Positions 3,325 to 25,877 of a stretch of 64,000 nt of DNA are shown here, one piece after another (the first letter of the stretch is position 1; each line of letters opens with the position of its first letter). The notes beneath the pieces are model-generated. The model was not told the DNA's origin and searched no databases. It saw only the letters and a program-made list of their open reading frames with translations. A program made the translations under genes and the position numbers. Source of the DNA: Vibrio bathopelagicus (lineage in GTDB: Bacteria; Pseudomonadota; Gammaproteobacteria; Enterobacterales; Vibrionaceae); contig NZ_CP062501.1 of the NCBI RefSeq assembly GCF_014879975.1, positions 1,798,001 to 1,862,000 on the forward strand, in the 5' to 3' direction.

Positions 3325-3867
3325 TGCTCTTTCCTTAAACAGATTAGACCTCTGATGAGTAAAAGAACCGTAGTTGATGATTTTATAAAACTAAAAAGAT
3401 TGACTCGATATTTGTGATACTGAACTTGAATTAAACAGTTGTGATGAACATTAAACAAATAGAATCAGACCAGATTTTTACATCACAACTTATTGATTAA
3501 ATTAACATTTAATGAAGATTATGAAGCTACAACTTCAATTATCTTGACCAAAGATAAGCCCAACATTCACATAAACGGCTCACCTCGTTTGGATCTACGA
3601 CGACATACTGGCGAGTCATAACTCTCAGAAATCGAATATTAAATGATAAATCTCTCGCTTCGAATCGATTAATTTTCAATCAGAAAGTCGTTGGAAATTT
3701 GATACTTATTCCAATTATGAAACGCCAACAACCTGAATGCATTGACGGGAATTATTGATTTTCGATATAGGTCGTACCAGTTATTTACTTGTCTACTTAT
3801 CAACAAGCAATAGACAACAAGCAACAACGTTATGTTTGGCTCACTAAATATAAAAGAGAATACAGTG
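3325..3867. other. Long intergenic region between divergent lipase and haemolysin genes
   Basis: About 540 bases, AT-rich, between two divergently transcribed lipolytic genes, so it must carry both promoters. A short reverse-strand open frame here (3669-3902) overlaps the haemolysin start and looks spurious. I see no tRNA, repeat or clear operator. Confidence 0.5.
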
Positions 3868-5115
3868 ATGAAAAATACGGCTTTAATACTCGCGTTAACC
3901 ATACCATTTGGGGCTTATGCTGCAGAAGATTCAATACCGACACCAGAATCGATTACATCAGCACAAGTGCTCAGCACACAAGGTTCAGAAACCTATTCTT
4001 ATGTTCGATGTTGGTACCGAACTGACGCATCACATGATTCCCCTGCTACCGACTGGCAATGGGCAAAAAAGGAAAATGGTGATTACTACACAATCAACGG
4101 ATATTGGTGGTCTTCCGTTTCTTTCAAAAACATGTTCTACAGCGATGCACCTCAATCGGAAATCAAAGAACGTTGCGAGCAAACACTCGATATCCAACAT
4201 GGCGCCGCTGACATCACCTACTTTGCGGCAGACAATCGCTTCTCTTACAATCACTCGATCTGGACCAACGACAACGCCGTCCAAGCAAACACCATTAATC
4301 GTATAGTCGCCTTTGGTGATAGCCTCTCTGATACCGGCAACCTATTTAATGGCTCTCAATGGGTTTTTCCGAACGCTGATTCATGGTTTTTAGGACACTT
4401 TTCGAATGGTTTGGTTTGGACTGAGTATTTAGCAAAAGCAAAAGACCTCCCTCTTTATAACTGGGCTGTAGGCGGTGCGGCTGGCACCAATCAATACGTC
4501 GCGCTGACTGGCGTATATGACCAAGTCACGTCCTACCTAACCTACATGAAAGTCGCCAAAAATTATCGCCCTGAAAACTCACTATTTACTCTAGAATTTG
4601 GCCTCAATGACTTTATGAATTACGACCGAGAAGTCGCCGATGTCAAAGCCGATTTCAGTAGCGCTCTGATCCGATTAACAGAATCTGGCGCGAGTAATAT
4701 ACTTCTGTTCACATTGCCCGATGCGACTAAGGCACCGCAGTTCAAATACTCTACCGAACAAGAGATCATTAAAGTTCGCGGAAAGATCTTAGAGTTCAAT
4801 CAATTCATCAAGGCGCAGGCCGAGTATTACCAAAGCTTGGGGAAAAACGTGGTGCTTTTTGATGCAAGTGCACTGTTTGCTAGCATTACCGATAATCCAG
4901 AGCAACATGGTTTTCGAAACGCGAGTGATGCCTGTCTTGATATCAATAGAAGCTCAGCTGCAGACTACTTACGAAGCCATAGCTTGACTAATGATTGCGC
5001 GACCTATGGCTCAGACAGCTATGTATTCTGGGGCGTGACACACCCAACCACGGCTACTCATAAATACATTGCCGATCATATCTTGGCGTACTCGTTCTCT
5101 ACCTTTGATTTCTAA
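3868..5115 (+). CDS. tlh: Thermolabile haemolysin (lecithin-dependent GDSL phospholipase/lipase)
   Basis: A 415-residue secreted protein. I start it at the ATG at 3868, after AAAGAGAAT, because this gives a clean signal peptide (MKNTALILALTIPFGAYA). An N-terminal Vibrio-specific domain of about 140 residues precedes the SGNH hydrolase domain. Block I is VAFGDSLSDTGN with Ser152, block II GGAAG, block III the EFGLNDF segment, and block V ends at GVTHPTTATH. In V. parahaemolyticus TLH the catalytic serine is Ser153, so register and length (418 there) agree. These enzymes hydrolyse phospholipids such as lecithin and lyse red cells. The neighbouring lipase and foldase make this a small lipolytic cluster, as seen in other vibrios. 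Confidence 0.95.
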   Translation: MKNTALILALTIPFGAYAAEDSIPTPESITSAQVLSTQGSETYSYVRCWYRTDASHDSPATDWQWAKKENGDYYTINGYWWSSVSFKNMFYSDAPQSEIKERCEQTLDIQHGAADITYFAADNRFSYNHSIWTNDNAVQANTINRIVAFGDSLSDTGNLFNGSQWVFPNADSWFLGHFSNGLVWTEYLAKAKDLPLYNWAVGGAAGTNQYVALTGVYDQVTSYLTYMKVAKNYRPENSLFTLEFGLNDFMNYDREVADVKADFSSALIRLTESGASNILLFTLPDATKAPQFKYSTEQEIIKVRGKILEFNQFIKAQAEYYQSLGKNVVLFDASALFASITDNPEQHGFRNASDACLDINRSSAADYLRSHSLTNDCATYGSDSYVFWGVTHPTTATHKYIADHILAYSFSTFDF

Positions 5116-5191
5116 CGAGGAAACCTCGTCAAGTATCATCAAATACGGTCTGTAAGTACCAGAAGCTAAGGGCTTACACGAAGTACAGATA

Positions 5192-5222
5192 CAAAAAAAC
5201 CGCCATCATCGGCGGTTTTTAG
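5192..5222. terminator. Bidirectional rho-independent terminator
   Basis: AAAACCGCC-atcat-GGCGGTTTTT, with an A run on one side and a T run on the other. It lies between the convergent haemolysin and helicase genes and can serve both. Confidence 0.9.
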
Positions 5223-5267
5223 TTACATCAACCTTTCAAAGCCAAGCTTTTAGGTCACGCGAGTTGA

Positions 5268-6599
5268 TTACTCGTCGTCCACTTTTGGTGCGACTTTCTT
5301 CTTAGGGATAAACACTGTATCACCCACAGCCACATTTTGGTGGAAGCTCTTATCGCGCTTAACCGGTTTCTTCGGCGTTTTCTTAACTTGAGTGTTGGTC
5401 TTCTTCTTCGCAGGTCCGCCTTTAGCAAAAGCAGGTTTACGAGGCTTAATACCTTTGAATTTACCTTTCAAGCCTTCAAGCACAGAGAAAGTAAGATCTT
5501 GTTGAAGGTAAAGCTCAACACGCTTGAAGCTGTCCCAGTCTTTTGGACCAACCAAAGAGATTGCATCGCCTTTGTTACCCGCACGACCAGTACGACCAAC
5601 GCGGTGCACGTACTCTTCTGTATGCTTAGGCATATCAAAGTTGATAACGTGGCTTACGTTTGGAATATCAATACCACGTGAAGCAACATCTGTTGTTACC
5701 AAGATCTTGTAAACCGCACGCTCAAATTGGCTCATGATGGCATTACGTTGCGTTTGGTTTAGGTTGCCGCTCAATGCCACTGCTTTAAGCTTCTTCTCGT
5801 TTAACTTATCCGTTAAACGATCAGTATCGGCACGAGTTGCAGTGAAGATCATCACCTGACGGTATTCAGCTTCTTCAATCACACGATCCAAGATCGCTTC
5901 TTTGTGATCTAGATGGTCACACAGGTAGAACTTCTGAGTGATATCAAGGTGTTGTTCGTTAGAAACGCCCACTGAGATACACTTAGGTGCATCTAGCATT
6001 TCATTTGCAATGCCATTCACTTCCGCGTGATCAAGCGTTGCAGAGAACATCAACGTTTGACGACGACGGTGTTTAGCTGCATTCGCAATACGACGTAATT
6101 CAGGTGCGAAACCTAAATCTAGCATGCGGTCAGCTTCATCAAGGATTAGCGTTTCAACACCATCTAAAAACAGTGAGCGGTGCTCTAGGTGATCCGCAAG
6201 ACGGCCTGGAGTCGCAACAATAAAACGAGGGTACTTACGTAGAGCTTTAACTTGGTCGTTAAAGTTTTCACCACCCAAGATAAGTGTTGCTTCGTAAGAC
6301 AAACCGCCAAGCATGCTACGCAGCTCGCCGTAAACTTGTTTTGCTAGCTCACGAGTAGGAGCCAAAATTACACCACGAGGATCTTTAGCAGAAAACGCTT
6401 TTGTTTTTAATGCTTTATGTATCATCGGCAACACAAACGCCAATGTTTTTCCTGATCCCGTTTTTGATGAAGCCAATAGATCCTTACCAGCAATAGCAAC
6501 AGGGATCGCTTTTGATTGGATCTCTGTCGCCTTCTTGAAGTCGTAATGTTTTAAGTTCTTCAGTAAGCGGTTATCTAAGCCTAAATCTTTAAAGTGCAA
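5268..6599 (-). CDS. DEAD-box ATP-dependent RNA helicase (RhlE/SrmB-like)
   Basis: A 443-residue helicase with all core motifs: Q motif near residue 20, motif I SKTGSGKT, Ia PTRELA, Ib TPGR, II DEAD, III SAT, IV IFTAT, V TTDVASRGID and VI HRVGRTGRAG. A Lys replaces the more usual Ala or Gln just before motif I (SSKTGSGKT). The last 70 residues are lysine- and proline-rich, like RNA-binding tails in this family, and end in an acidic DDE. It probably remodels RNA structures in ribosome assembly or mRNA decay, often important in the cold. The exact subfamily cannot be fixed from motifs alone. Confidence 0.93.
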   Translation of the reverse strand: MHFKDLGLDNRLLKNLKHYDFKKATEIQSKAIPVAIAGKDLLASSKTGSGKTLAFVLPMIHKALKTKAFSAKDPRGVILAPTRELAKQVYGELRSMLGGLSYEATLILGGENFNDQVKALRKYPRFIVATPGRLADHLEHRSLFLDGVETLILDEADRMLDLGFAPELRRIANAAKHRRRQTLMFSATLDHAEVNGIANEMLDAPKCISVGVSNEQHLDITQKFYLCDHLDHKEAILDRVIEEAEYRQVMIFTATRADTDRLTDKLNEKKLKAVALSGNLNQTQRNAIMSQFERAVYKILVTTDVASRGIDIPNVSHVINFDMPKHTEEYVHRVGRTGRAGNKGDAISLVGPKDWDSFKRVELYLQQDLTFSVLEGLKGKFKGIKPRKPAFAKGGPAKKKTNTQVKKTPKKPVKRDKSFHQNVAVGDTVFIPKKKVAPKVDDE

Positions 6600-6961
6600 A
6601 GGACTCTCCAGTCATGATGGTATTGAATAAAATTAATTTAACGTGACATGATACCGCGAAAGTACTTTATAAGGATAGAGATCACAGTAAATTTATCCCT
6701 TTATCTAATGTTAACCAGAATATTATATGCACTGCTAACAAAGGGGTGACTCACCTTTTCACTGTATTATTACCGCGCCACCCACTTCATCTCAAAAGTG
6801 AGACAGATTGTGATACCTAGCTAATTAGCTCAAAAATTTAGCAATTTCTTTAGTTATTGTTTTTGCAGTTAAAAAATTTGTCGCTACAATCATTAATGAA
6901 GCGACTATATGATAAAGAATGTATAGCGCATCTTTTGATGATAAATAAGCAAGGAGTTCTT
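6600..6961. other. Intergenic region upstream of the Lpp-type lipoprotein
   Basis: About 360 bases between divergent helicase and lipoprotein genes. The right end holds the lipoprotein promoter and leader. I see no RNA gene or repeat in the rest. Confidence 0.5.
6863..6890 (+). promoter_or_regulatory. Probable sigma-70 promoter of the lipoprotein gene
   Basis: TTGCAG (6863-6868) and TACAAT (6885-6890) are separated by 16 bases. Transcription would start near 6897 and give a leader of about 65 bases ending in the strong ribosome site AAGGAG at 6951-6956. Confidence 0.6.
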
Positions 6962-7228
6962 ATGAATAAGACGTTAATCGCAGCTGCAGCCTCTGTGTTC
7001 ATTCTAGCAGGTTGTTCTTCTGAGCCAGAAGAAGCTGCAGTGTCTGAGATGGATCAACTAACGAATCAAGTTGCTCAACTAACAAGCGAAGTAGAAGCAC
7101 TTAAGAGTGACAAAGCGGCTGCTGAAATGAAAGCTCAAGAAGCATCAGCTGCGGCTATGGCAGCAAAAGAAGAAGCGGATCGTGCTAACGACCGTATCGA
7201 CAACATTGCTGAGTCTTACACTAAGTAA
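6962..7228 (+). CDS. lpp: Lpp/OprI-type alanine-zipper outer-membrane lipoprotein
   Basis: An 88-residue lipoprotein. The ATG at 6962 follows a textbook AAGGAG, so upstream in-frame ATGs are not used. The lipobox is LAGC, with Cys18 as the lipidation site. The mature part is an uninterrupted heptad helix (MDQLTNQVAQLTSEVEALKS) rich in Ala, and the last residue is Lys, the residue through which E. coli Lpp is joined to diaminopimelate of peptidoglycan. It faces a convergent L,D-transpeptidase gene, the enzyme class that makes this bond. Covalent attachment is inferred from the terminal Lys and the neighbour. Confidence 0.88.
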   Translation: MNKTLIAAAASVFILAGCSSEPEEAAVSEMDQLTNQVAQLTSEVEALKSDKAAAEMKAQEASAAAMAAKEEADRANDRIDNIAESYTK

Positions 7229-7291
7229 TTGAGATAGAAGCTCAATGAAGCTGTAGATTTCAAAAGACGTATATACATGCAGTAAATTGAC

Positions 7292-17336: not shown

Positions 17337-18557
17337 TTACTGTACTTTCTTCAACACAAAAAAGTGATAGTCAAAATCACGCTTAGCTGAGCCTTGAGAA
17401 CCTTCCAAAGCTTCGCTGTTATTGAAAAATTGTTTAATTTCATTGTCGCAATCCGCCAGCGCTTTCGAGTTCGGCATTGTCGCTTTCAATGCTTCTACTT
17501 GCTTTTGCAAAGGCTGATAATAGGCAAGCCAACCGGCATCACTCATCGCAAAGTCACCCAAGACTTGATAGCCAGCTGCCTTAGCCTGCTTAATGCGCTC
17601 AGAGACCGTCGTCATATCTGAGTACTCTTTTTGCCAGAAAGCTTTGACTGATTCTCTAGGGTTCTCGGTGTTCCACACCAGATCATTCACAACCAATATG
17701 CCGTCATCAGTAAGTAGCTTTCGCCACTGCTTAAGTGCCTTCTGGACACCCATGATGTACGCACTGCCCTCTGACCAAATTAAGTCGAACGATTTAGCTT
17801 CAAACGGTAAGTCCATCATGCTTGCACACACGGTTTTAATATTGCTTTCTAGAGCAAGTTCTAATGCTTGTTGGTTTAGAATATCCAAAAACGGTTGATC
17901 ATTGTCGACCGCAGTAATCTGAAGTTCAGCCTGATGCTCTTTCATCGCGTTCGCTAATACAGAGGTCGCGATACCTTTACCACAACCAATCTCAAGCACG
18001 TGTTTCGGTGAGCTAGGCACTTGAGCCAACGCTTCTAAGGTATCTTCAGCCGTTCCTGGTCCTAAACGTTCTAATCCGTCAAAGATGACGCTGAAATCCG
18101 CCATATATTGTTCGTGTTCATTCATGTCTTTCGATAACCACTTCAATCGCAGAGCCTGTTTCTCATCAAAGCCCTGCTTAATTAACCAATCGAGGTGTGC
18201 ATCTGGCGCAAGCTTGTCCATTGACTCATGCCACTCTTCTAATCCTCTTTCGCCTAGCATTGCAGCTAATAGATCTCGTGAACGCTGCTTTTGTACTAGC
18301 TCTTCATCCAACTGCTTAAGGCGGTTTTCTAACAAAGGGCGTTCTATTTTGGCATCCAAGCACGCTTGGCACTCTTTGAGCGTTAACCCACCCGCTTGTA
18401 ATTGCTGTAACAAACGAACACGTTGCAGATCCTTTTCTGAGTAAAGACGATAGCCATTACTCTGGCGTTGAGCTTCAATCAAACCTAGCTTGCCGTAATA
18501 CAACAATGTGGAGCGACTCAGCCCAACTAATTCGGCCAGTTCAGAGATACGATACAT
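17337..18557 (-). CDS. MerR-type regulator fused to a SAM-dependent methyltransferase
   Basis: A 406-residue fusion. Residues 1-70 are a MerR winged helix (YRISELAELVGLSRSTLLYYGKLGLIEAQRQSNGYRLYS) with the RLLQQLQAGGLTLKEC continuation. A coiled-coil linker (about 75-110) leads to a class I methyltransferase: motif I VLEIGCGKG, motif II ITAVDND, and FDLIWSEGSAYIMG with LTDDGILVVNDLVW beyond it, resembling small-molecule methyltransferases. The coiled coil that normally dimerises MerR proteins is present. The fusion suggests that the catalytic domain serves as the ligand sensor, or that the protein both senses and methylates a toxic compound. Single-gene transcript next to the GNAT remnant. 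Confidence 0.88.
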   Translation of the reverse strand: MYRISELAELVGLSRSTLLYYGKLGLIEAQRQSNGYRLYSEKDLQRVRLLQQLQAGGLTLKECQACLDAKIERPLLENRLKQLDEELVQKQRSRDLLAAMLGERGLEEWHESMDKLAPDAHLDWLIKQGFDEKQALRLKWLSKDMNEHEQYMADFSVIFDGLERLGPGTAEDTLEALAQVPSSPKHVLEIGCGKGIATSVLANAMKEHQAELQITAVDNDQPFLDILNQQALELALESNIKTVCASMMDLPFEAKSFDLIWSEGSAYIMGVQKALKQWRKLLTDDGILVVNDLVWNTENPRESVKAFWQKEYSDMTTVSERIKQAKAAGYQVLGDFAMSDAGWLAYYQPLQKQVEALKATMPNSKALADCDNEIKQFFNNSEALEGSQGSAKRDFDYHFFVLKKVQ

Positions 18558-18621: not shown

Positions 18622-19590
18622 CTAACTCTTTTTTTCATCCAATCGGTATAAATCTCTGAGGGTATCTTTGAGCCATAACACTATAGGATTGTAGGCATTT
18701 CGCTTATGCCAAACCATCGTAAATGGGATCAGTAGCTTATTGGCATGTTCTTCGTCTAACGGAATAGGTAAGCAGGTTAGATTGGGGTGAAGTTGCTCTG
18801 CATAGCGTCGGCAGTAGTTGGGCGCAACCGTCGTCATAGTGTGATTAGATTGAGCCGCCATAAACAGAGACTGCTCGAAGCCTGCAAGCGTAAGGGCAAT
18901 GTTTCGGTCTAGTTGCAAATCGGTGAGCACCTCATCCAGCGCCCATCTCTCACTTTTCTCCCAAACAATATTGATATGAGGGTATTTAAGAAAGGCCTCT
19001 AGATTCCACTCTTCTTGTAAAGCGGGATGGTCTTTTCTTAGGTAGACCACGGGAAGATCATGAAACAGAATTTCATAATCAATGAAATACGGCAGCGCGT
19101 TTAAAGACTCTTTTGAGCGAGGGTGACTTTCTCGTCCTGAGAATCCGATATCAGACTCTCCACGGACGATGGAGTCGATTGAATCGTAATCCCAGTTACG
19201 CATTTTTATTTTCGCATCTGGGTAACGTTGATACACACTGTGTGTCAGCTCATTAAGCATGATCAGCGACAGAGGAGATTCTGCCTCGAGATTCAAGCGT
19301 ATGTCTTTTGGCGTATCGTCGCCCCGAGTCGTCAATATCTGACTGCCTATCTGCAACCAATCTTGTAAATCTTTTTCCATGGTTAACGCGAGAGGCGTTG
19401 CTGTTAAGCCACTTGGCGTTTTCACAAACAGCGGATCATCAAACCAATCACGTAGCTTCGTCAGAGATTTACTCACCGTTGAAGGGGTAACATTCAGCTT
19501 CTTTGCTGCTTTTGACACACTCTGCTCTTGTAATAACAATTGCAGAGTAAACAGCAGATTCAAATCAAGACGGGCTAGTGGCTTCTTCAT
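18622..19590 (-). CDS. yidZ: LysR-type transcriptional regulator, YidZ-like
   Basis: About 322 residues from the ATG at 19590 ([14 protein letters not shown]); an in-frame ATG two codons earlier is also possible. The N-terminal winged HTH is [38 protein letters not shown] and a periplasmic-binding-protein-like effector domain follows. The long stretch around [29 protein letters not shown] closely resembles E. coli YidZ as I remember it, a regulator linked to nitric oxide tolerance in anaerobic growth. Its start lies inside the end of the mdtL-like gene, so the two are cotranscribed, and E. coli also has mdtL next to yidZ. Confidence 0.9.
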
Positions 19591-20776
19591 AATCACTTTT
19601 AACTTGGGAAGGACCTACACATAGTATTAGAGCAATACTGATAACTCCACCAGCAGCCAGTATAAATACCAACATATTCAATGCACTTAGCCCAACAACA
19701 CCCATCAACCAAATGAACAGTGCCGAAGTACACACCTGAGAAACACCCAGTATTGAACTGGCCATGCCTGCTCGCTGTGAATAACAACTCAATGCTTGGC
19801 TCATCGCGACACCAAAACCTAACGAGAAGCCACCGCACACGAAGGCAAAACCAATAAGCGTCACGTAATGCCCTAAGCCGCCATCAATCGATGCAAGCAG
19901 CAAGACAGCCGCAATAACAAAGCACATTTGAGATGTCAGCATCAGGCTTTTCTGCTTAAACACGTTCAATGCAAACGGAGACGAGAACGACACCAACATA
20001 CTCACTAACGCTGTGAGAGCCATGGTGTAGGAATACTGACCACGGTCGAAGCCAAGTTCTGTCATGATCAACATTGGAGAGACATTCACGTAAGTCAGAA
20101 TCGCCGTCACACCCAAACTGGTCATGATCACTCGGCTAATGAACAACGGTTCTTTAAATGTTTCGATTGACGTCGCTTGAGATGCCTCAGATACAGAGGC
20201 TTTTGTTACCATTGACTCTGTAACGTTAGGTTTAGTCTCTTTTAGCACAAACACCGACAACAAGCCCACCACGACGCCCATACTCGCCATGGTCGTAAAC
20301 AAGCTCGGCCATGGGTATACCATCATGATTAAGTGACCAATCACCGGAGCCAACACGGGAACAATACAGGTAATGCCATTCATCATCGACAAAACCTTGG
20401 CTCGCTTTTGGTCGTCCAATACATCTCGCAAAATGGCAAACGCAACAACGTAACAAGAGCCCGCACCTACACCTTGAAAAAAGCGTACAGCTAGAAATGG
20501 TTCGGCACTGGTGACACTCGCACCCAGCATCGAAGAAGCGGTAAACACGATAGCACCGAAAATCGCGACAGGCTTTCGCCCCACCGTATCGGCGAACTTA
20601 CCAGCAAACAGCATAGTGGTTGCCATACCAGCTAAATAAATAGAAAACGCGACATGCAATTGCGCTTCAGAAGCATTCAGATCCGAAGCAATTTGAGGTA
20701 ACCCAACAAGATACAGATCAATCGCTGTTGGGTATAAAAGAACAAGCGCAAAACTACAAAACAGAAAACGATACAT
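19565..20776 (-). CDS. mdtL: MFS drug exporter, MdtL-like
   Basis: A 403-residue, 12-helix major facilitator of the DHA1 (Bcr/CflA) group. The opening [21 protein letters not shown], the motif-A loop [14 protein letters not shown], the helix segment [21 protein letters not shown] and [10 protein letters not shown] match E. coli MdtL closely. It should export toxic compounds such as chloramphenicol using the proton gradient. It overlaps the downstream yidZ-like gene by about 26 bases. A hairpin sits immediately in front of its start codon (20782-20802) and hides the only ribosome-site-like sequence. Confidence 0.92.
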
Positions 20777-20860: not shown

Positions 20861-22084
20861 TTACGACATACCATTTCTAAGTGCTGCATCTTTGATGGAG
20901 GCATACATCAAACAACTCACGACACATACCCCACCCATGATGAGATAACCCGCACTCACACCAAAGAATTTCACGCTCATCCCCGCGATCAAATAAGTAA
21001 ACAACCACCAGAAATGCGTTAAAGAGAAGTGCGCTGCAAAATACGGGGCGGTGTCTTCTCCCTCGCACGCTTGGGTGATCAATAGGCCTGCGGAAGTTTG
21101 AATACAAGACATCCCTACTCCCATGGCTAAACACATTACGCCAAAGCCGACCCAACCAGGCGTGAAGCTACCCACCATAAAAGAGGCACAAATTGTCAGT
21201 AAACCTATCCAGTGGAAATGTTGAGGAGAATGATTTTCTAGCCACTTTGGTAACCGAAGCGCCATCAACATAGAGCCCAAGCCAACAACCATCATCGCTA
21301 ATGCGGTTTGCGTTTCGTCACCATGCAGCACTTCATGCACATAGATAACCGTATTCACCAGCACCATCGCAGAAGCACTGGCCGCTGCCAGATACGCAAA
21401 CCATAAAGCTCTCAATTTAGGTTTATTCAAATAATTGCGCAGCCCTTGCATCACACTAAGTTTCTGAGTTTTATAAGCTGATTCTGTTACTCCTTTCAAA
21501 TTCGGAAGTGTACACAACAAGATCAAAACCCCAGACAGCAAAAAAGTAGCTGCATCAAGCATGAACAGCTGTCTAAAACCAATTAAGCTCAGCAATAAGG
21601 CCGTTAGCATCGGGCTAAAGATCTGTTCAAGATCGTAAGCCATTCGGCTGAACGACAGGGCTTTCGCATACTGTGTTTTATCCACCAACACCAACGGCAA
21701 CGTGGATTGAAACAGCGGAGTAAACCCCGCAGAACATGCATTGATGAGAAACATCAACACATAGACTTCCCATACTTCAGTGACAAACGGCAAACATACA
21801 AATAGCAACGCCCTAATCAAATCGAGCGCGACCAAAGTCCGTCTTTTCGGTAACTTATGTGCGATAGCACCAAATACCGGAGCTAATCCAATGTACGCCA
21901 ACATCTTCAAAGCGAAAGCGATACTCAGCACCATACCTGCGTCATCACCCGACAGTTCATAAGCGAGCAACGCTAAGCAGATAGAACTCATGCCCGTGCC
22001 GACCAAAGAGATAATCTGCGCAGACAGCAGGCGTATATAGTCTCGGTTGCGCCACATTGGCGTCGTGCTCATTTCAGTGATCAT
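20861..22084 (-). CDS. MFS exporter in the MurE-like operon
   Basis: A 407-residue, 12-helix major facilitator of the DHA3/EntS-like group: WRNRDYIRLLSAQIISLVGTGMSS at the N-terminus is the typical first helix of macrolide- or siderophore-type exporters, followed by APVFGAIAHKLPKRRTLVALDLIRA (motif A). Its ATG overlaps the stop of the DD-carboxypeptidase gene (ATGA), so translation is coupled. In this operon it most likely exports a cell-wall-related or antibiotic molecule, which is an inference. The substrate is unknown. Confidence 0.85.
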   Translation of the reverse strand: MITEMSTTPMWRNRDYIRLLSAQIISLVGTGMSSICLALLAYELSGDDAGMVLSIAFALKMLAYIGLAPVFGAIAHKLPKRRTLVALDLIRALLFVCLPFVTEVWEVYVLMFLINACSAGFTPLFQSTLPLVLVDKTQYAKALSFSRMAYDLEQIFSPMLTALLLSLIGFRQLFMLDAATFLLSGVLILLCTLPNLKGVTESAYKTQKLSVMQGLRNYLNKPKLRALWFAYLAAASASAMVLVNTVIYVHEVLHGDETQTALAMMVVGLGSMLMALRLPKWLENHSPQHFHWIGLLTICASFMVGSFTPGWVGFGVMCLAMGVGMSCIQTSAGLLITQACEGEDTAPYFAAHFSLTHFWWLFTYLIAGMSVKFFGVSAGYLIMGGVCVVSCLMYASIKDAALRNGMS

Positions 22085-23352
22085 TCGTTCACCTCAATCC
22101 GACCCATCAAGTCAGAGAATAACCCACCGAACCAAAGTTTGACGCTGTCCCAAAGTCGCACCATCCAAGAGCCTTGTTCTACAGTTTGATCTGCGACTAA
22201 AGCGTAACTTGCCACCGTAGTACCGTTACTCTTCCAGACGACTTTGCCCACCTCAGATCCCTGCTCAACAGGCGCAATAAGCGGATCAATCATTACCACA
22301 GATTTTTGCAGCGAATCGACTAACCCTCTAGGCATAGTCAGGTACGCATCTTCGGCTATCTTGGCACTAACTTGTTCGATATCCCCCTTCCACACTCGCA
22401 CCTGAGATTCGACTTGATTGTGCTGCATTACTTGTTTGGTATCGTAGAAACGAAATCCATAACTCAGTAGGTTCTTTGAAGCTGTGGTTCGTGCTTGCGG
22501 GCTATTGGTACCCATCACGACCGATATCAACCGCATCTTACCTTCCGTAGCAGAGCTGACTAAGCTGTAGCCCGCATTCTCTGTGTAACCCGTTTTGCCA
22601 CCATCGACGTTAATGGACTTGTCCCAAAGCAGCTTGTTTCGATTGTATTGAGTGATCTCATTCCATTTGAACAGACGCTCTTGGTATAACACATAAACGT
22701 CTGGTACATCCTTGATGATCGACCGCATCAAAATCGCCATATCAAGCGGAGAAGTTTGGATGCCTTCGCCATCTAAGCCATGCGCATTCACAAAGTTAGT
22801 ATCTTGCAGCCCAAGCGATTTCGCCCAACCATTCATTAGGCTAACAAAAGCTTGCTCACTCCCCGCGATGTGTTCGGCCAAAGCGACAGAAGCATCATTA
22901 CCCGACTGAATGATCACCCCTTTCATAAGGTTCGAGACCGAAATCTCATCTCCAGGCTGAATAAACATCTTGGATGACTCTGAAAATTTTGCCGACCACG
23001 CATTTTCACTGACCGAGACTTTATCCTGCCATGTCAATCTACCGGACTTAATCTCTTGTCCAATCACATAAGCCGTCATCAACTTCGTCAAACTGGCGGG
23101 CGCTAAAATCGCGCGTGAGTTTTGCTCTGCAATGATGGTGCCTGACTGAAAGTCCATCAAAACATAACCTTTGGCGGGCAACTCAGGCGGATTGGGCGTT
23201 ACCACCGCCAAGCTTGGTGTACTTATCCCCGCTAACGTTAAGCAAGCCAAGGCTAGCCGCCATCGAAGCTTCGCTTTAAACTTCATTTTAGTCTTTGCTT
23301 TCACAGCAAAATATGAGGAGACCCTGAACTTCAATACCGAGACCTTCCTCAT
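22081..23352 (-). CDS. D-alanyl-D-alanine carboxypeptidase, PBP5/6 (DacA) type
   Basis: A 423-residue penicillin-binding protein of type S11. I choose the ATG at 23352: it overlaps the MurE-like stop (ATGA) and follows a strong GGAGGAGG. An extended basic N-terminus and a hydrophobic core form the signal peptide (to about SLA49). Active-site motifs are SLTK (87-90, Ser87 acylated), SGN (150-152) and KTG (253-255). A C-terminal PBP5 beta domain follows, and the end (WMVRLWDSVKLWFGGLF) is an amphipathic membrane anchor like that of PBP5. The enzyme removes the terminal D-Ala from peptidoglycan pentapeptides in the periplasm. A paralogue in an accessory operon is unusual. Confidence 0.93.
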   Translation of the reverse strand: MRKVSVLKFRVSSYFAVKAKTKMKFKAKLRWRLALACLTLAGISTPSLAVVTPNPPELPAKGYVLMDFQSGTIIAEQNSRAILAPASLTKLMTAYVIGQEIKSGRLTWQDKVSVSENAWSAKFSESSKMFIQPGDEISVSNLMKGVIIQSGNDASVALAEHIAGSEQAFVSLMNGWAKSLGLQDTNFVNAHGLDGEGIQTSPLDMAILMRSIIKDVPDVYVLYQERLFKWNEITQYNRNKLLWDKSINVDGGKTGYTENAGYSLVSSATEGKMRLISVVMGTNSPQARTTASKNLLSYGFRFYDTKQVMQHNQVESQVRVWKGDIEQVSAKIAEDAYLTMPRGLVDSLQKSVVMIDPLIAPVEQGSEVGKVVWKSNGTTVASYALVADQTVEQGSWMVRLWDSVKLWFGGLFSDLMGRIEVNE

Positions 23353-24785
23353 AGTACCTCCTCCAAAGTCAGTGCCGCGACATCGCCGATATAACATTGC
23401 CGACCCACTTGATTAGTCGTGATGTATTGATGAGTTTCCGAGCCTTTGCCACACACTAAGATAAGGTCACCACTGCGACTCAATTGCTTGGCAACCTGAA
23501 TCGCCTCATGGCGGTCACTGATTTCGTAGCAAAGCGTACTACTCACTTGCGAAGTTAATGCACGGAAAATATCCTCCTGCATTTCGCCAAGTGGGTTGTC
23601 TGAGGTGAAAATAACAACATCAGAATGGGTAGCGCATAACTTCCCAATGTCAGCTGCATCCCGTATTCGGTCGCCCGTCACACCGACGACCGTTATCACT
23701 CGCTTAGCCAACTGAGAGTGAATGCCTTGGTAAAGAGCCGAAAGGCCATCAAAGTTATGTGCATAATCCACTAAAGCCAAAGCACCATTGTCTAGCGATA
23801 AATACTTTGAACGCCCGTCAGGTGCAACAACACCATTCAGCGCGCTTGCGATGTCCGATAACGACCACTTCAATGTCAACAGGGTTGCTGCCATCGCTAA
23901 GGCATTCTCGACATTAAACTGAAAGGGAAGTTGGCTAAAAACAGGCTCTTTTCTACCTTGATTATTGAGAATAAAAGTAGCGCCAAATTGCTCAACCTTC
24001 AGTTGTTCAACATAAAGATCCGCCTCTGGATTGTACATTGAGAATGTCACAACATTAACTCGGCTGCTTGCTCGCTCTATCGCAACATTGGCGTGCGCAT
24101 CATCTAGGTTGATCACCGCAAAACCATTGGGTTGAATACGATCTAAAATCTGAAGTTTCGCCTGAACATAGCCATCAACCGTTCTGTGATAATCAAGGTG
24201 GTCACGGCCAATATTGGTGATCACCCCAACAGACAACGGTACAAATCCGGCTCTGTCTTGCACCAATGCATGACTGCTTAGCTCCATAACGTTATCCGTG
24301 ACCTGCGCTTCAGCCATATCCTTAAATAAATTCAACAGAGTGACACCGTCTGGTGTGGTATTACTCAGCTCTTGTTTCTTGCCCGCGAACTCCACACCGA
24401 GCGTTCCAATGTAGGCGCTCCGTTGCTTGTGCTTGAGGATCTGATTCAAACCATGAGCAACCGTCGTTTTTCCATTTGTTCCGGTAATACCGATGTGATT
24501 AATCTTCTTATGCGGGTATTGATAAAAAGCCTTAATAAGCAACAAGCTTTGGTAATGACTTCCAGTCACCAACACAGGCACCGATGCTGAAACAGGTTTT
24601 GTTGCAATAATGGCAACCGCCCCATTCGCAATCGCACTTTCAATATAACGATGACTGTCATGAGCAGCCCCTTCGCGGCAAACAAACACATCCTGAGACT
24701 CGATATGCTCACTGTTTGTTGAGAAGCGCCTAATCGACAGTGCGCCCAGTTGTTTTAAAAAGCCTTTCAATTTGTCACTCAACAT
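23349..24785 (-). CDS. Divergent Mur ligase, MurE-like (UDP-MurNAc-tripeptide synthetase family)
   Basis: A 478-residue protein from the ATG at 24785, since this start matches the usual MurE N-terminus (short helix, then FSTNSEHIESQDVFV); the frame is open to 24887. The ATP loop GITGTNGKTT ends near residue 108, then NTTPDG, GRDHLDYH with Lys210 in YVQAK as the likely carbamylated lysine, NVENALAMAA and VDYAHNFDG. The meso-diaminopimelate motif DNPR of Gram-negative MurE reads DNPL here (396-399), and the GKR segment after GDR is also changed (GDRIRDAAD). It should add an amino acid to a UDP-MurNAc-dipeptide or similar acceptor, but perhaps not diaminopimelate. It is the first gene of a coupled operon with a DacA-type enzyme and an exporter. 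Confidence 0.85.
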   Translation of the reverse strand: MLSDKLKGFLKQLGALSIRRFSTNSEHIESQDVFVCREGAAHDSHRYIESAIANGAVAIIATKPVSASVPVLVTGSHYQSLLLIKAFYQYPHKKINHIGITGTNGKTTVAHGLNQILKHKQRSAYIGTLGVEFAGKKQELSNTTPDGVTLLNLFKDMAEAQVTDNVMELSSHALVQDRAGFVPLSVGVITNIGRDHLDYHRTVDGYVQAKLQILDRIQPNGFAVINLDDAHANVAIERASSRVNVVTFSMYNPEADLYVEQLKVEQFGATFILNNQGRKEPVFSQLPFQFNVENALAMAATLLTLKWSLSDIASALNGVVAPDGRSKYLSLDNGALALVDYAHNFDGLSALYQGIHSQLAKRVITVVGVTGDRIRDAADIGKLCATHSDVVIFTSDNPLGEMQEDIFRALTSQVSSTLCYEISDRHEAIQVAKQLSRSGDLILVCGKGSETHQYITTNQVGRQCYIGDVAALTLEEVL

Positions 24786-24847
24786 CCACTTGTCCCTTAA
24801 GTTGGCTAGGATTTCTTGATTAAGTTGAGTATATTTTGCTGACCAAC

Positions 24848-24871
24848 ATCGATAAAATTGAACAAATCGAT
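24848..24871. promoter_or_regulatory. Paired ATCGAT repeats between the MurE-like and LysR genes
   Basis: ATCGAT at 24848-24853 and 24866-24871, centres 18 bases apart, lie in the middle of the divergent gap. Size and position suit a LysR-type operator for the adjacent regulator. This is an inference from position and symmetry. Confidence 0.4.
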
Positions 24872-24938
24872 CCAAGTTATTAGTCACCTTGATAACCTAG
24901 ATTCTTTTGTGTTACCTCTACCAGATGCGAGTATTGCT

Positions 24939-25877
24939 GTGAAAGATCTTAATTGGCGTGGAATCGACCTCAACCTACTGCTGACTTTTGATGCACTTTT
25001 TCGTTTAAAGAGTGTTTCCGCAGCCTCAAAAGAACTGCACTTGGGGCAGCCTGCCACCAGTTATAACCTCAAGCGGCTCCGTGAGTTATTGGGTGACCCT
25101 CTGTTTGAAAGGCAAGGCAATAAAATGCAGCCGACCGTGAGAGCACATGAAGTCGCCCCCAAAGTTCAGCAAATTTTGTCGATTTTCACGCAAGATATTT
25201 TACCTGCTGAGCAATTTGAGCCACAAAACTACACAGGTCAGTTCATCATTGGCGTTAGTGATTATGCAGAGCAGATCTTTGGCCCAGATATTTTCGACAC
25301 GCTTCAGAAACTTGCTCCTCAAAGTAAGGTTCTGCTCAAGCCTGTCGACAGTGCAAATTGCGTAACGTTACTCGAAGATCAAGATACTGACTTATGCATT
25401 GGCGTATTTCAGGAGCTACCAAACCACCTCAACACCACCTTTCTTTACCGAGAAAAGCACCTGTGTACCTTTGATAACAAGGTATTGAATACCAAACTTC
25501 CAATTCCGCTAGACACCTACTTAGATACACCGCAAATGATCATTACGGCGAATCAAGAGTTAACCAGCCAAGTTGACGGCACATTGGAAAAAGTGGGAGT
25601 TAAACGAAATGTGGTACTTGGGACGACCCGTTTTCTAACGATTCGCAGGATGCTTTCAGGAAGAAATCTGTTGGCTGTAATGGCCGAGATGGTCGGTCGT
25701 TCTGAGTTAATTGACGATGACTTGGTGTTATGCGATCCGCCGATTGATATCCCTGACTTTGATATCGATATGGTGACTTTAAAACGCGACGCGAACCACC
25801 CTCGAATTCAGTTTCTGACGCAACTCGTCCAAAACCTCATTCAAGATAAAGTGAGAGAGCTAAGATTAATCAGATAA
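24939..25877 (+). CDS. LysR-type regulator divergent from the MurE-like operon
   Basis: About 312 residues from the GTG at 24939, which gives a normal LysR opening (KDLNWRGIDLNLLLTFDALF); a TTG at 24858 would add 27 residues and run through the likely operator. HTH: SVSAASKELHLGQPATSYNLKRLRELLGDPLFERQGNKM. The effector domain begins near TGQFIIGVSDYAEQI, a NodD/SyrM-like flavour. LysR proteins usually control the divergent operon and their own gene, so this one probably responds to a ligand linked to cell-wall or antibiotic stress. AmpR, another LysR protein, senses muropeptides; the parallel is suggestive only. Confidence 0.88.
   Translation: MKDLNWRGIDLNLLLTFDALFRLKSVSAASKELHLGQPATSYNLKRLRELLGDPLFERQGNKMQPTVRAHEVAPKVQQILSIFTQDILPAEQFEPQNYTGQFIIGVSDYAEQIFGPDIFDTLQKLAPQSKVLLKPVDSANCVTLLEDQDTDLCIGVFQELPNHLNTTFLYREKHLCTFDNKVLNTKLPIPLDTYLDTPQMIITANQELTSQVDGTLEKVGVKRNVVLGTTRFLTIRRMLSGRNLLAVMAEMVGRSELIDDDLVLCDPPIDIPDFDIDMVTLKRDANHPRIQFLTQLVQNLIQDKVRELRLIR

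What the first reader, a model, noticed from the sequence alone, without database searches (positions are those of the whole stretch)
20861..25877. Coupled MurE-like / DacA-like / MFS operon under a divergent LysR gene
Three genes overlap stop-to-start (ATGA twice) and join a Mur ligase, a PBP5-type DD-carboxypeptidase and a DHA3-type exporter. A divergent LysR gene shares the promoter region. These functions normally sit in separate places; here they act as one unit. Possible roles: altered muropeptide synthesis, tolerance to a cell-wall antibiotic, or ligation and export of a small peptide. Seen: gene order, overlaps, motifs. Known: LysR proteins such as AmpR can sense muropeptides. Inferred: a single cell-wall-related pathway.
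Basis: partly seen in the sequence, partly recalled or inferred. Interest (0 to 1): 0.78.

Follow-up and report, generated by a model that had tools for sequence, protein, structure and literature searches.

The report
Spare non-DAP-type MurE cassette, Vibrio
Some marine Vibrio and relatives carry, besides their normal cell-wall gene murE, a second MurE-like enzyme that has lost the residue used to grip the usual wall building block, often packed with a wall-trimming enzyme and an exporter under one switch; it looks like an inducible way to change or protect the cell wall, but its job has not been tested.

Summary
The four genes and both ATGA overlaps are real. Likely starts are MurE2 ATG 24785 and LysR GTG 24939, leaving a 153-bp region with a conserved LysR-type operator. 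A canonical murE is kept in 29 of 29 MurE2 genomes searched, so this is not the essential copy. LysR|MurE2-DacA2-MFS is complete at 14 of 22 MurE2 loci examined, in about eight neighbourhoods, and on one 519-kb Vibrio plasmid; proteins of complete units fall to 49-57% identity. MurE2 forms its own MurE clade. The DNPR arginine that binds the distal mDAP carboxylate is Leu, Met or Gln in 63 of 63 clusters, Arg in 56 of 56 next hits; the amino-group-binding Glu is kept. Best fold match: lysine-adding S. aureus MurE. Seven genomes have LysR|MFS alone; some MurE2 loci lack the partners. Best reading: an inducible efflux pair that often carries an alternative, probably non-mDAP, MurE plus a DD-carboxypeptidase, altering or bypassing the DAP stem peptide under attack. 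Conservation is shown; substrate and purpose are inferred. New variant of a known kind.

The parts
23349..24785 (-). MurE2: second MurE-type Mur ligase (478 aa from ATG 24785); DNPL in place of DNPR
   Evidence: (TIGR01085 327.2 bits, cut-off 257.3)
22081..23352 (-). DacA2: PBP5-type D,D-carboxypeptidase (423 aa) with SLTK, SGN and KTG motifs, an apparent N-terminal signal peptide and an amphipathic C-terminus (motif names recalled; signal and C-terminus judged by eye)
   Evidence: one of three S11 peptidases of the genome; 54% and 51% identical to the two others
20861..22084 (-). MFS exporter of the DHA3 / TIGR00900 'H+ antiporter' type (407 aa)
   Evidence: TIGR00900 219.8 bits, below its cut-off of 319.6
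24939..25877 (+). Divergent LysR-type regulator (312 aa from GTG 24939)
24828..24833 (-). Putative -10 hexamer TATACT of the MurE2 operon promoter; 25 bp from box 2 in 15 of the 17 MurE2-side regions, not found in L050 and L054
24853..24862 (.). Conserved box 2 of the operator ([TA][GA]AAAT[CT]GAA)
   Evidence: 21 of 24 LysR-upstream regions; mean 0.24 in letter shuffles
24877..24896 (.). LysR-type recognition site, here TTAT-N11-ATAA; exactly 25 bp from box 2 in the 15 regions that have both
   Evidence: TAT-N11-ATA in 18 of 24 LysR-upstream regions; mean 5.4 in letter shuffles

Best explanation
An inducible accessory module for protecting or altering the cell wall. LysR binds a two-box operator and controls a divergent operon. 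The last gene, an MFS exporter, occurs with LysR even without the other two, so it is probably LysR's basic partner and removes a small molecule that is, or is related to, the LysR ligand. Between operator and exporter sit MurE2 and DacA2. [quoted passage not shown] DacA2 then trims the terminal D-Ala from new stem peptides in the periplasm. Together this would change or bypass the DAP stem peptide when a DAP-directed or cell-wall-directed agent is present, while the exporter lowers its dose. Shown: gene content, coupling, conservation, operator, canonical murE kept, residue changes, MurE fold, purifying selection. Inferred: substrate, induction, protective role.
Against: The MurE2 substrate was not measured; in PMC3829189 (passages) putting Arg into the S. 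aureus motif did not give DAP activity, so the motif alone does not set specificity. T. maritima MurE has Arg there yet is titled an LD-lysine ligase. The best mDAP-ligase equivalog model is missed by only 3.5 bits, while the L-lysine-ligase model is missed by far. Four of 63 clusters have His for the Asp of DNP. LysR|MFS without MurE2 (7 genomes) and MurE2 without MFS show that the parts can exist apart. No inducer, phenotype or expression data were found.
Confidence: 0.42

Rival explanations
1. Inhibitor-insensitive spare mDAP ligase: MurE2 still adds meso-DAP but resists a natural MurE inhibitor that the exporter also pumps out (target duplicate plus efflux), DacA2 being a helper.
For: Target duplicate beside an exporter is a familiar self-protection design (recalled). 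Canonical murE is retained and MurE2 is 30-34% identical to it. One mDAP-ligase equivalog model is missed by only 3.5 bits.
Against: Loss of the DAP-carboxylate arginine in 63 of 63 clusters argues against efficient DAP use. No biosynthetic cluster was noticed beside the unit, but flanks were only listed as ORFs, with selected neighbours run through Pfam and one annotated plasmid stretch read.
Confidence: 0.22
2. MurE2 makes a small peptide or amino-acid conjugate, which DacA2 processes and the MFS protein exports (signal or antibiotic).
For: Ligase, peptidase and exporter in one coupled operon. MurE2 has no Pfam hit for the Mur ligase N-terminal domain at E 0.001.
Against: LysR|MFS occurs without MurE2 in 7 genomes and MurE2 without MFS at other loci. 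The model aligns over its whole length with MurE product complexes. PF01225 is precomputed for other members of the clade such as P0023.
Confidence: 0.13
3. Two independent modules joined by chance or as a mobile pack: an efflux pair (LysR|MFS) and a cell-wall pair (MurE2-DacA2), without a common task.
For: The parts exist apart; the unit lies in about eight neighbourhoods and on a plasmid; sites without it and a remnant exist.
Against: Gene order, overlaps and operator geometry are kept while the proteins of complete units fall to 49-57% identity.
Confidence: 0.18
4. Ordinary essential murE that has moved to chromosome 2.
For: Many relatives are named as the mDAP-adding ligase by sources.
Against: Canonical murE present at C1:510481-511962 and in 29 of 29 genomes searched.
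Confidence: 0.01

Closest known systems
S. aureus MurE, L-lysine-adding (PDB 4c12)
   Different: 26% identity in that alignment; DNPLG instead of DNPA; sits in a genome that also has a canonical proteobacterial MurE with DNPR
Thermotoga maritima MurE, LD-lysine ligase (PDB 4bub)
   Same: Best sequence match in the PDB (216 bits); similar N-domain wording F-[VI]-C-R-x-G...D-S-H (by eye from that alignment)
   Different: Has DDPR where MurE2 has DNPL
E. coli / Vibrio canonical MurE
   Same: Same ligase family, P-loop, carbamylated Lys and GDR Arg
   Different: MurE2 proteins are 30-34% identical to the window genome's canonical MurE, lack the mDAP Arg and lie elsewhere in the genome
PBP5 / DacA
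   Same: Peptidase_S11 plus PBP5_C; best PDB match 5tr7, a D-alanyl-D-alanine carboxypeptidase
   Different: Extra copy, coupled to murE2; below the DacA equivalog cut-off (385.5 of 694 bits)
DHA3 MFS exporters (TIGR00900)
   Same: Near whole-length match, 219.8 bits
   Different: Below the model's cut-off; substrate unknown

Membership tests
MurE (UDP-MurNAc-tripeptide synthetase) | Family profile TIGR01085 above cut-off | tested here: met
   327.2 bits against 257.3
MurE (UDP-MurNAc-tripeptide synthetase) | Catalytic frame: GTNGKTT, carbamylated Lys, GDR Arg, GKGxE Glu | tested here: met
   TGTNGKTT invariant in 16 of 16 rows; Lys and Arg 63 of 63, Glu 62 of 62 with a letter there
mDAP-adding MurE | DNPR motif with Arg for the distal DAP carboxylate | tested here: not met
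   Leu 41, Met 21, Gln 1 of 63 clusters; Arg in 56 of 56 next hits
mDAP-adding MurE | NCBIfam mDAP-ligase equivalog cut-offs | tested here: not met
   Best 369.5 against 373 bits; a near miss
L-Lys-adding MurE | NCBIfam PRK14022 L-lysine ligase cut-off | tested here: not met
   254.8 against 536 bits
L-Lys-adding MurE | Asp and Glu for the epsilon-amino group, no Arg in the motif | tested here: met
   Glu 62 of 62 with a letter there, Asp 59 of 63, Arg 0 of 63; Asp and Glu both present in the window protein
L-Lys-adding MurE | Lysine-adding activity | not testable with these tools
   Needs enzyme assay
PBP5-type DD-carboxypeptidase | Peptidase_S11 and PBP5_C domains | tested here: met
   296.6 and 77.2 bits, both over cut-off
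LysR-type regulator with T-N11-A operator | HTH_1 and LysR_substrate domains; dyad near the divergent promoter | tested here: met
   Domains; dyad in the window region and in 18 of 24 regions; binding itself not tested
DHA3 / TIGR00900 exporter | Family cut-off | tested here: not met
   219.8 against 319.6 bits; MFS_1 cut-off met

The most novel reading that the evidence does not exclude
An inducible stem-peptide switch in Gram-negative bacteria: under LysR control the cell makes part of its peptidoglycan with a non-DAP (Lys- or Orn-type) third residue and trims it, making the wall a poor substrate for DAP-directed weapons of competitors (such as the secreted D-Glu-mDAP endopeptidase PnpA of Photobacterium) or a poor ligand for DAP-sensing immune receptors of marine animal hosts.
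Probability: 0.17. Interest if true: 0.85.

Novelty: new variant of a known kind. Interest (0 to 1): 0.52.

Why it matters
DAP at position 3 is generally taken as fixed in Gram-negative peptidoglycan (recalled), and overexpressing S. aureus murE in E. coli gives lysis (PMC3829189, passages). A conserved, regulated second MurE without the DAP-binding arginine, kept beside the normal one and coupled to a DD-carboxypeptidase, makes it directly testable whether Vibrionaceae alter their stem peptide on demand. If so it matters for antibiotic tolerance, warfare between marine bacteria, and recognition of Vibrio and Photobacterium by animal hosts. Even if MurE2 adds DAP, it would be a target-duplicate plus efflux arrangement worth testing.

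Tried and rejected
Ordinary essential murE: rejected. Operon reaching into the downstream MdtL-like MFS and YidZ-like LysR genes: rejected as a fixed part, because these occur without the cassette in relatives and are missing at G140 where the cassette is intact (L039). Cassette as part of a larger biosynthetic cluster: none noticed, but flanks were mostly only listed as ORFs and clustered, with selected neighbours run through Pfam. Gain or loss of MurE2 on the MFS tree: 3 changes, direction unresolved, long branches meet. G446 matched the MurE2 profile at 309 bits, but its neighbours include further Mur-ligase-like ORFs as in a dcw cluster, so it was dropped as a canonical murE. L035 (Paucilactobacillus, 33% identity) has DNPR and was used only in the tree. 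Endozoicomonas MurE2 context could not be fetched (genome-contig scan used; in the class sample only the own genome was positive). The Ferrimonas ORF list kept one strand where ORFs overlap and so missed MurE2 itself at L079; absence of LysR, DacA2 and MFS there rests on that list. Paper searches: nothing on this unit in the lists shown, which were capped (8 of 9, 3 of 3, 20 of 32, 15 of 215, 20 of 104, 0 of 0). Read: passages of PMC3829189 and PMC9602339, and outline, abstract section and passages of PMC7860986. The model's coordinates were not among the files laid for scripts, so pocket geometry was not measured. Letter shuffles keep base composition only, not dinucleotides or relatedness.
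Full report
Observation. The window lies on the second, 2.02-Mb contig of a two-contig, 5.67-Mb genome. Among named records found, the nearest is Vibrio lentus, 91% identical at MurE2 (records very near the window's genome may be left out there). The ATGA overlaps at 23349-23352 and 22081-22084 are real. The starts need correction: relatives point to ATG 24785 for MurE2 and GTG 24939 for LysR, which frees a 153-bp intergenic region.

Not the essential copy. The Mur ligase search of the own genome gives seven matches, this gene and six on the other contig, four of them in a row at C1:510829-519025. Searching 29 genomes (23 Vibrionaceae, 6 of genus g40) with the own canonical MurE finds a canonical copy in 29 of 29; in 28 of 29 a second, 30-34% identical match at the MurE2 place also passes E 1e-40, and in G638 only the canonical copy passes that limit.

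Distribution. MurE2 is present in 23 of 296 sampled Vibrionaceae genomes at E <= 1e-60: 12 of the window's genus and 11 of genus g8, which contig lengths identify as Photobacterium (G133, G139, G148, G150 against names). In an order-wide sample 7 of 394 genomes matched the A1 profile at E <= 1e-90: four of the window's genus already known, two of genus g40, and G446, set aside as canonical. In a class-wide sample 1 of 369 matched at E <= 1e-110, the own genome. The protein search adds Endozoicomonas, Sansalvadorimonas and a spirochaete MAG (best 120 of 7278 listed, and only 7998 candidates scored).

The unit. Of the 23 Vibrionaceae genomes, 22 loci were examined with flanks; G146 sits on a 3.5-kb contig and was left out of this count (MurE2 followed by the MFS gene). 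All four genes in the same order are at 14 of 22 loci: L036-L047, L050 and L058, the window's own. The other eight: MurE2+MFS with truncated LysR (L053) or whole LysR (L054) and no DacA2; LysR cut and MFS broken (L049); MurE2+MFS only (L052, L056); MurE2 alone (L048, L055); MurE2 with a LysR fragment (L051). Judged by shared flanking ORFs the 14 fall into about eight neighbourhoods; plasmid pTHAF190c_b carries the complete unit in another. Five of 72,556 plasmid records held MurE2; H1-H3, of 1.85 Mb, and H5, of 2.1 Mb, look like second chromosomes filed as plasmids (inference). The lowest identities to the window's proteins in complete units are 49% (MurE2), 55% (DacA2), 57% (MFS) and 57% (LysR).

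Coupling. MurE2 and DacA2 can overlap by 4 bases at 13 of 14 complete loci and by 1 at the other; DacA2 and MFS by 4 at 8 of 14, the other six lying between -8 and +2 bases by nearest possible start.

Modules. Searching with the MFS protein gives 27 of 296 genomes at E <= 1e-80, eight of them without MurE2. Seven of these have LysR divergent from the MFS gene with nothing between; the eighth, G214, is a deletion remnant in which LysR and MFS lie end to end. Of 14 regions fetched around the neighbouring permease gene of relatives, 13 show none of the four genes beside it and one is the G214 remnant; G054 among them has the cassette elsewhere. In the six Ferrimonas loci no listed ORF matches LysR, DacA2 or MFS; that list missed MurE2 itself at L079.

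Operator. In 24 LysR-upstream regions (17 with MurE2, 7 MFS-only), box 2 is in 21 (mean 0.24 in shuffles) and a TAT-N11-ATA dyad in 18 (mean 5.4). The 15 regions with both have them exactly 25 bp apart. The hexamer AGTATA (TATACT toward MurE2) is in 17 regions (mean 3.9): 15 of the 17 MurE2 regions, always 25 bp from box 2 and missing at L050 and L054, and two MFS-only regions that lack box 2. Box 2 is missing at three MFS-only regions (L127, L129, L132) and the dyad at six regions (L039, L042, L043, L054, L081, L128). The expectation comes from 200 letter shuffles, and several loci are close relatives, so the counts overstate independence. Boxes shared by both arrangements suggest one regulator controlling whichever gene stands first.

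MurE2 chemistry. In an alignment with E. coli MurE, the Arg of DNPR is Leu in 41, Met in 21 and Gln in 1 of 63 clusters P0002-P0064, and Arg in 56 of 56 of P0066-P0121; the spirochaete P0065 has Leu. The group P0002-P0064 was set by the drop in score below it. Asp of the motif is kept in 59 of 63 (His in P0054, P0058, P0059, P0061), the Glu of GKGxE in 62 of 62 with a letter there, the carbamylated Lys and the GDR Arg in 63 of 63. PMC3829189 (passages) reports that in S. aureus MurE the corresponding Asp and Glu hold the lysine epsilon-amino group, that E. coli Arg-416 holds the mDAP carboxylate, that L-Orn is accepted with 400-fold lower specificity, that overexpressed wild-type enzyme made E. 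coli lyse, and that putting Arg in did not give DAP activity. The motif is therefore a pointer, not proof; and the NCBIfam models favour neither reading (369.5 of 373 bits for an mDAP model, 254.8 of 536 for the lysine model).

Selection. By Nei-Gojobori counts MurE2 pairs give dN/dS of 0.17, 0.05 and 0.06 among the Photobacterium loci L049, L053 and L054, two of which have damaged LysR, and 0.05 in two Vibrio pairs; two further pairs were saturated at synonymous sites, and three of the five have dS above 1, so only the 0.17 pair and one Vibrio pair rest on moderate distances. MurE2 seems retained even where its regulator decays.

Mechanism. Steps shown: coupled genes, conserved operator, retained canonical murE, residue changes. 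Steps inferred: LysR responds to a compound that the MFS protein exports; MurE2 places a non-DAP residue, Lys or Orn most likely; DacA2 trims the product. Marine neighbours do use DAP-directed weapons: PnpA of Photobacterium damselae is secreted, is specific for the D-Glu-mDAP bond and degrades the wall of V. anguillarum and V. vulnificus, although its authors put susceptibility down to wall architecture and not to composition (PMC7860986, abstract section and passages). That makes the stem-switch reading possible but not favoured over simple drug tolerance.

Literature. Six searches listed no paper on a second MurE in Vibrionaceae or on this gene set; the lists were capped and only open-licence papers are held, so absence is weak evidence.

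Noticed in passing
18622-20776 and 17337-18557: Downstream of the cassette lie an MdtL-type efflux gene overlapping a YidZ-type LysR gene, then a MerR-methyltransferase fusion; the first pair also occurs in relatives without the cassette and looks like a separate variable unit.
   Followed up: partly
L114 (G214) 3652-5757: A natural deletion has removed MurE2 and DacA2 and the region between LysR and MFS, leaving LysR and MFS remnants end to end.
   Followed up: partly
L076:6428-7525, L078:6483-7421, L079:6011-6988: At 3 of 6 Ferrimonas MurE2 loci a gene of one cluster lies just downstream; its L076 member is of the arginase family, and an ORF just upstream at L076 is of the glyoxalase family. 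Arginase makes L-ornithine, a possible hint at the substrate.
   Followed up: no
L035:3995-5527 and 5714-7267: Paucilactobacillus nenjiangensis has two divergently oriented MurE-like ORFs side by side, one with DNPR and a very divergent one with DDPD.
   Followed up: no
L049, L051, L053: Photobacterium relatives with LysR truncated or reduced to a fragment, and the MFS gene broken in L049, keep an open MurE2.
   Followed up: partly
L051:3764-4900 and L055:5541-6689: Two of the Photobacterium loci with MurE2 without whole partners have a Beta-lactamase-family protein (PF00144, scanned at L051) and a MaoC-like gene (scanned at L051) nearby, with ORFs of the same clusters at L055.
   Followed up: no
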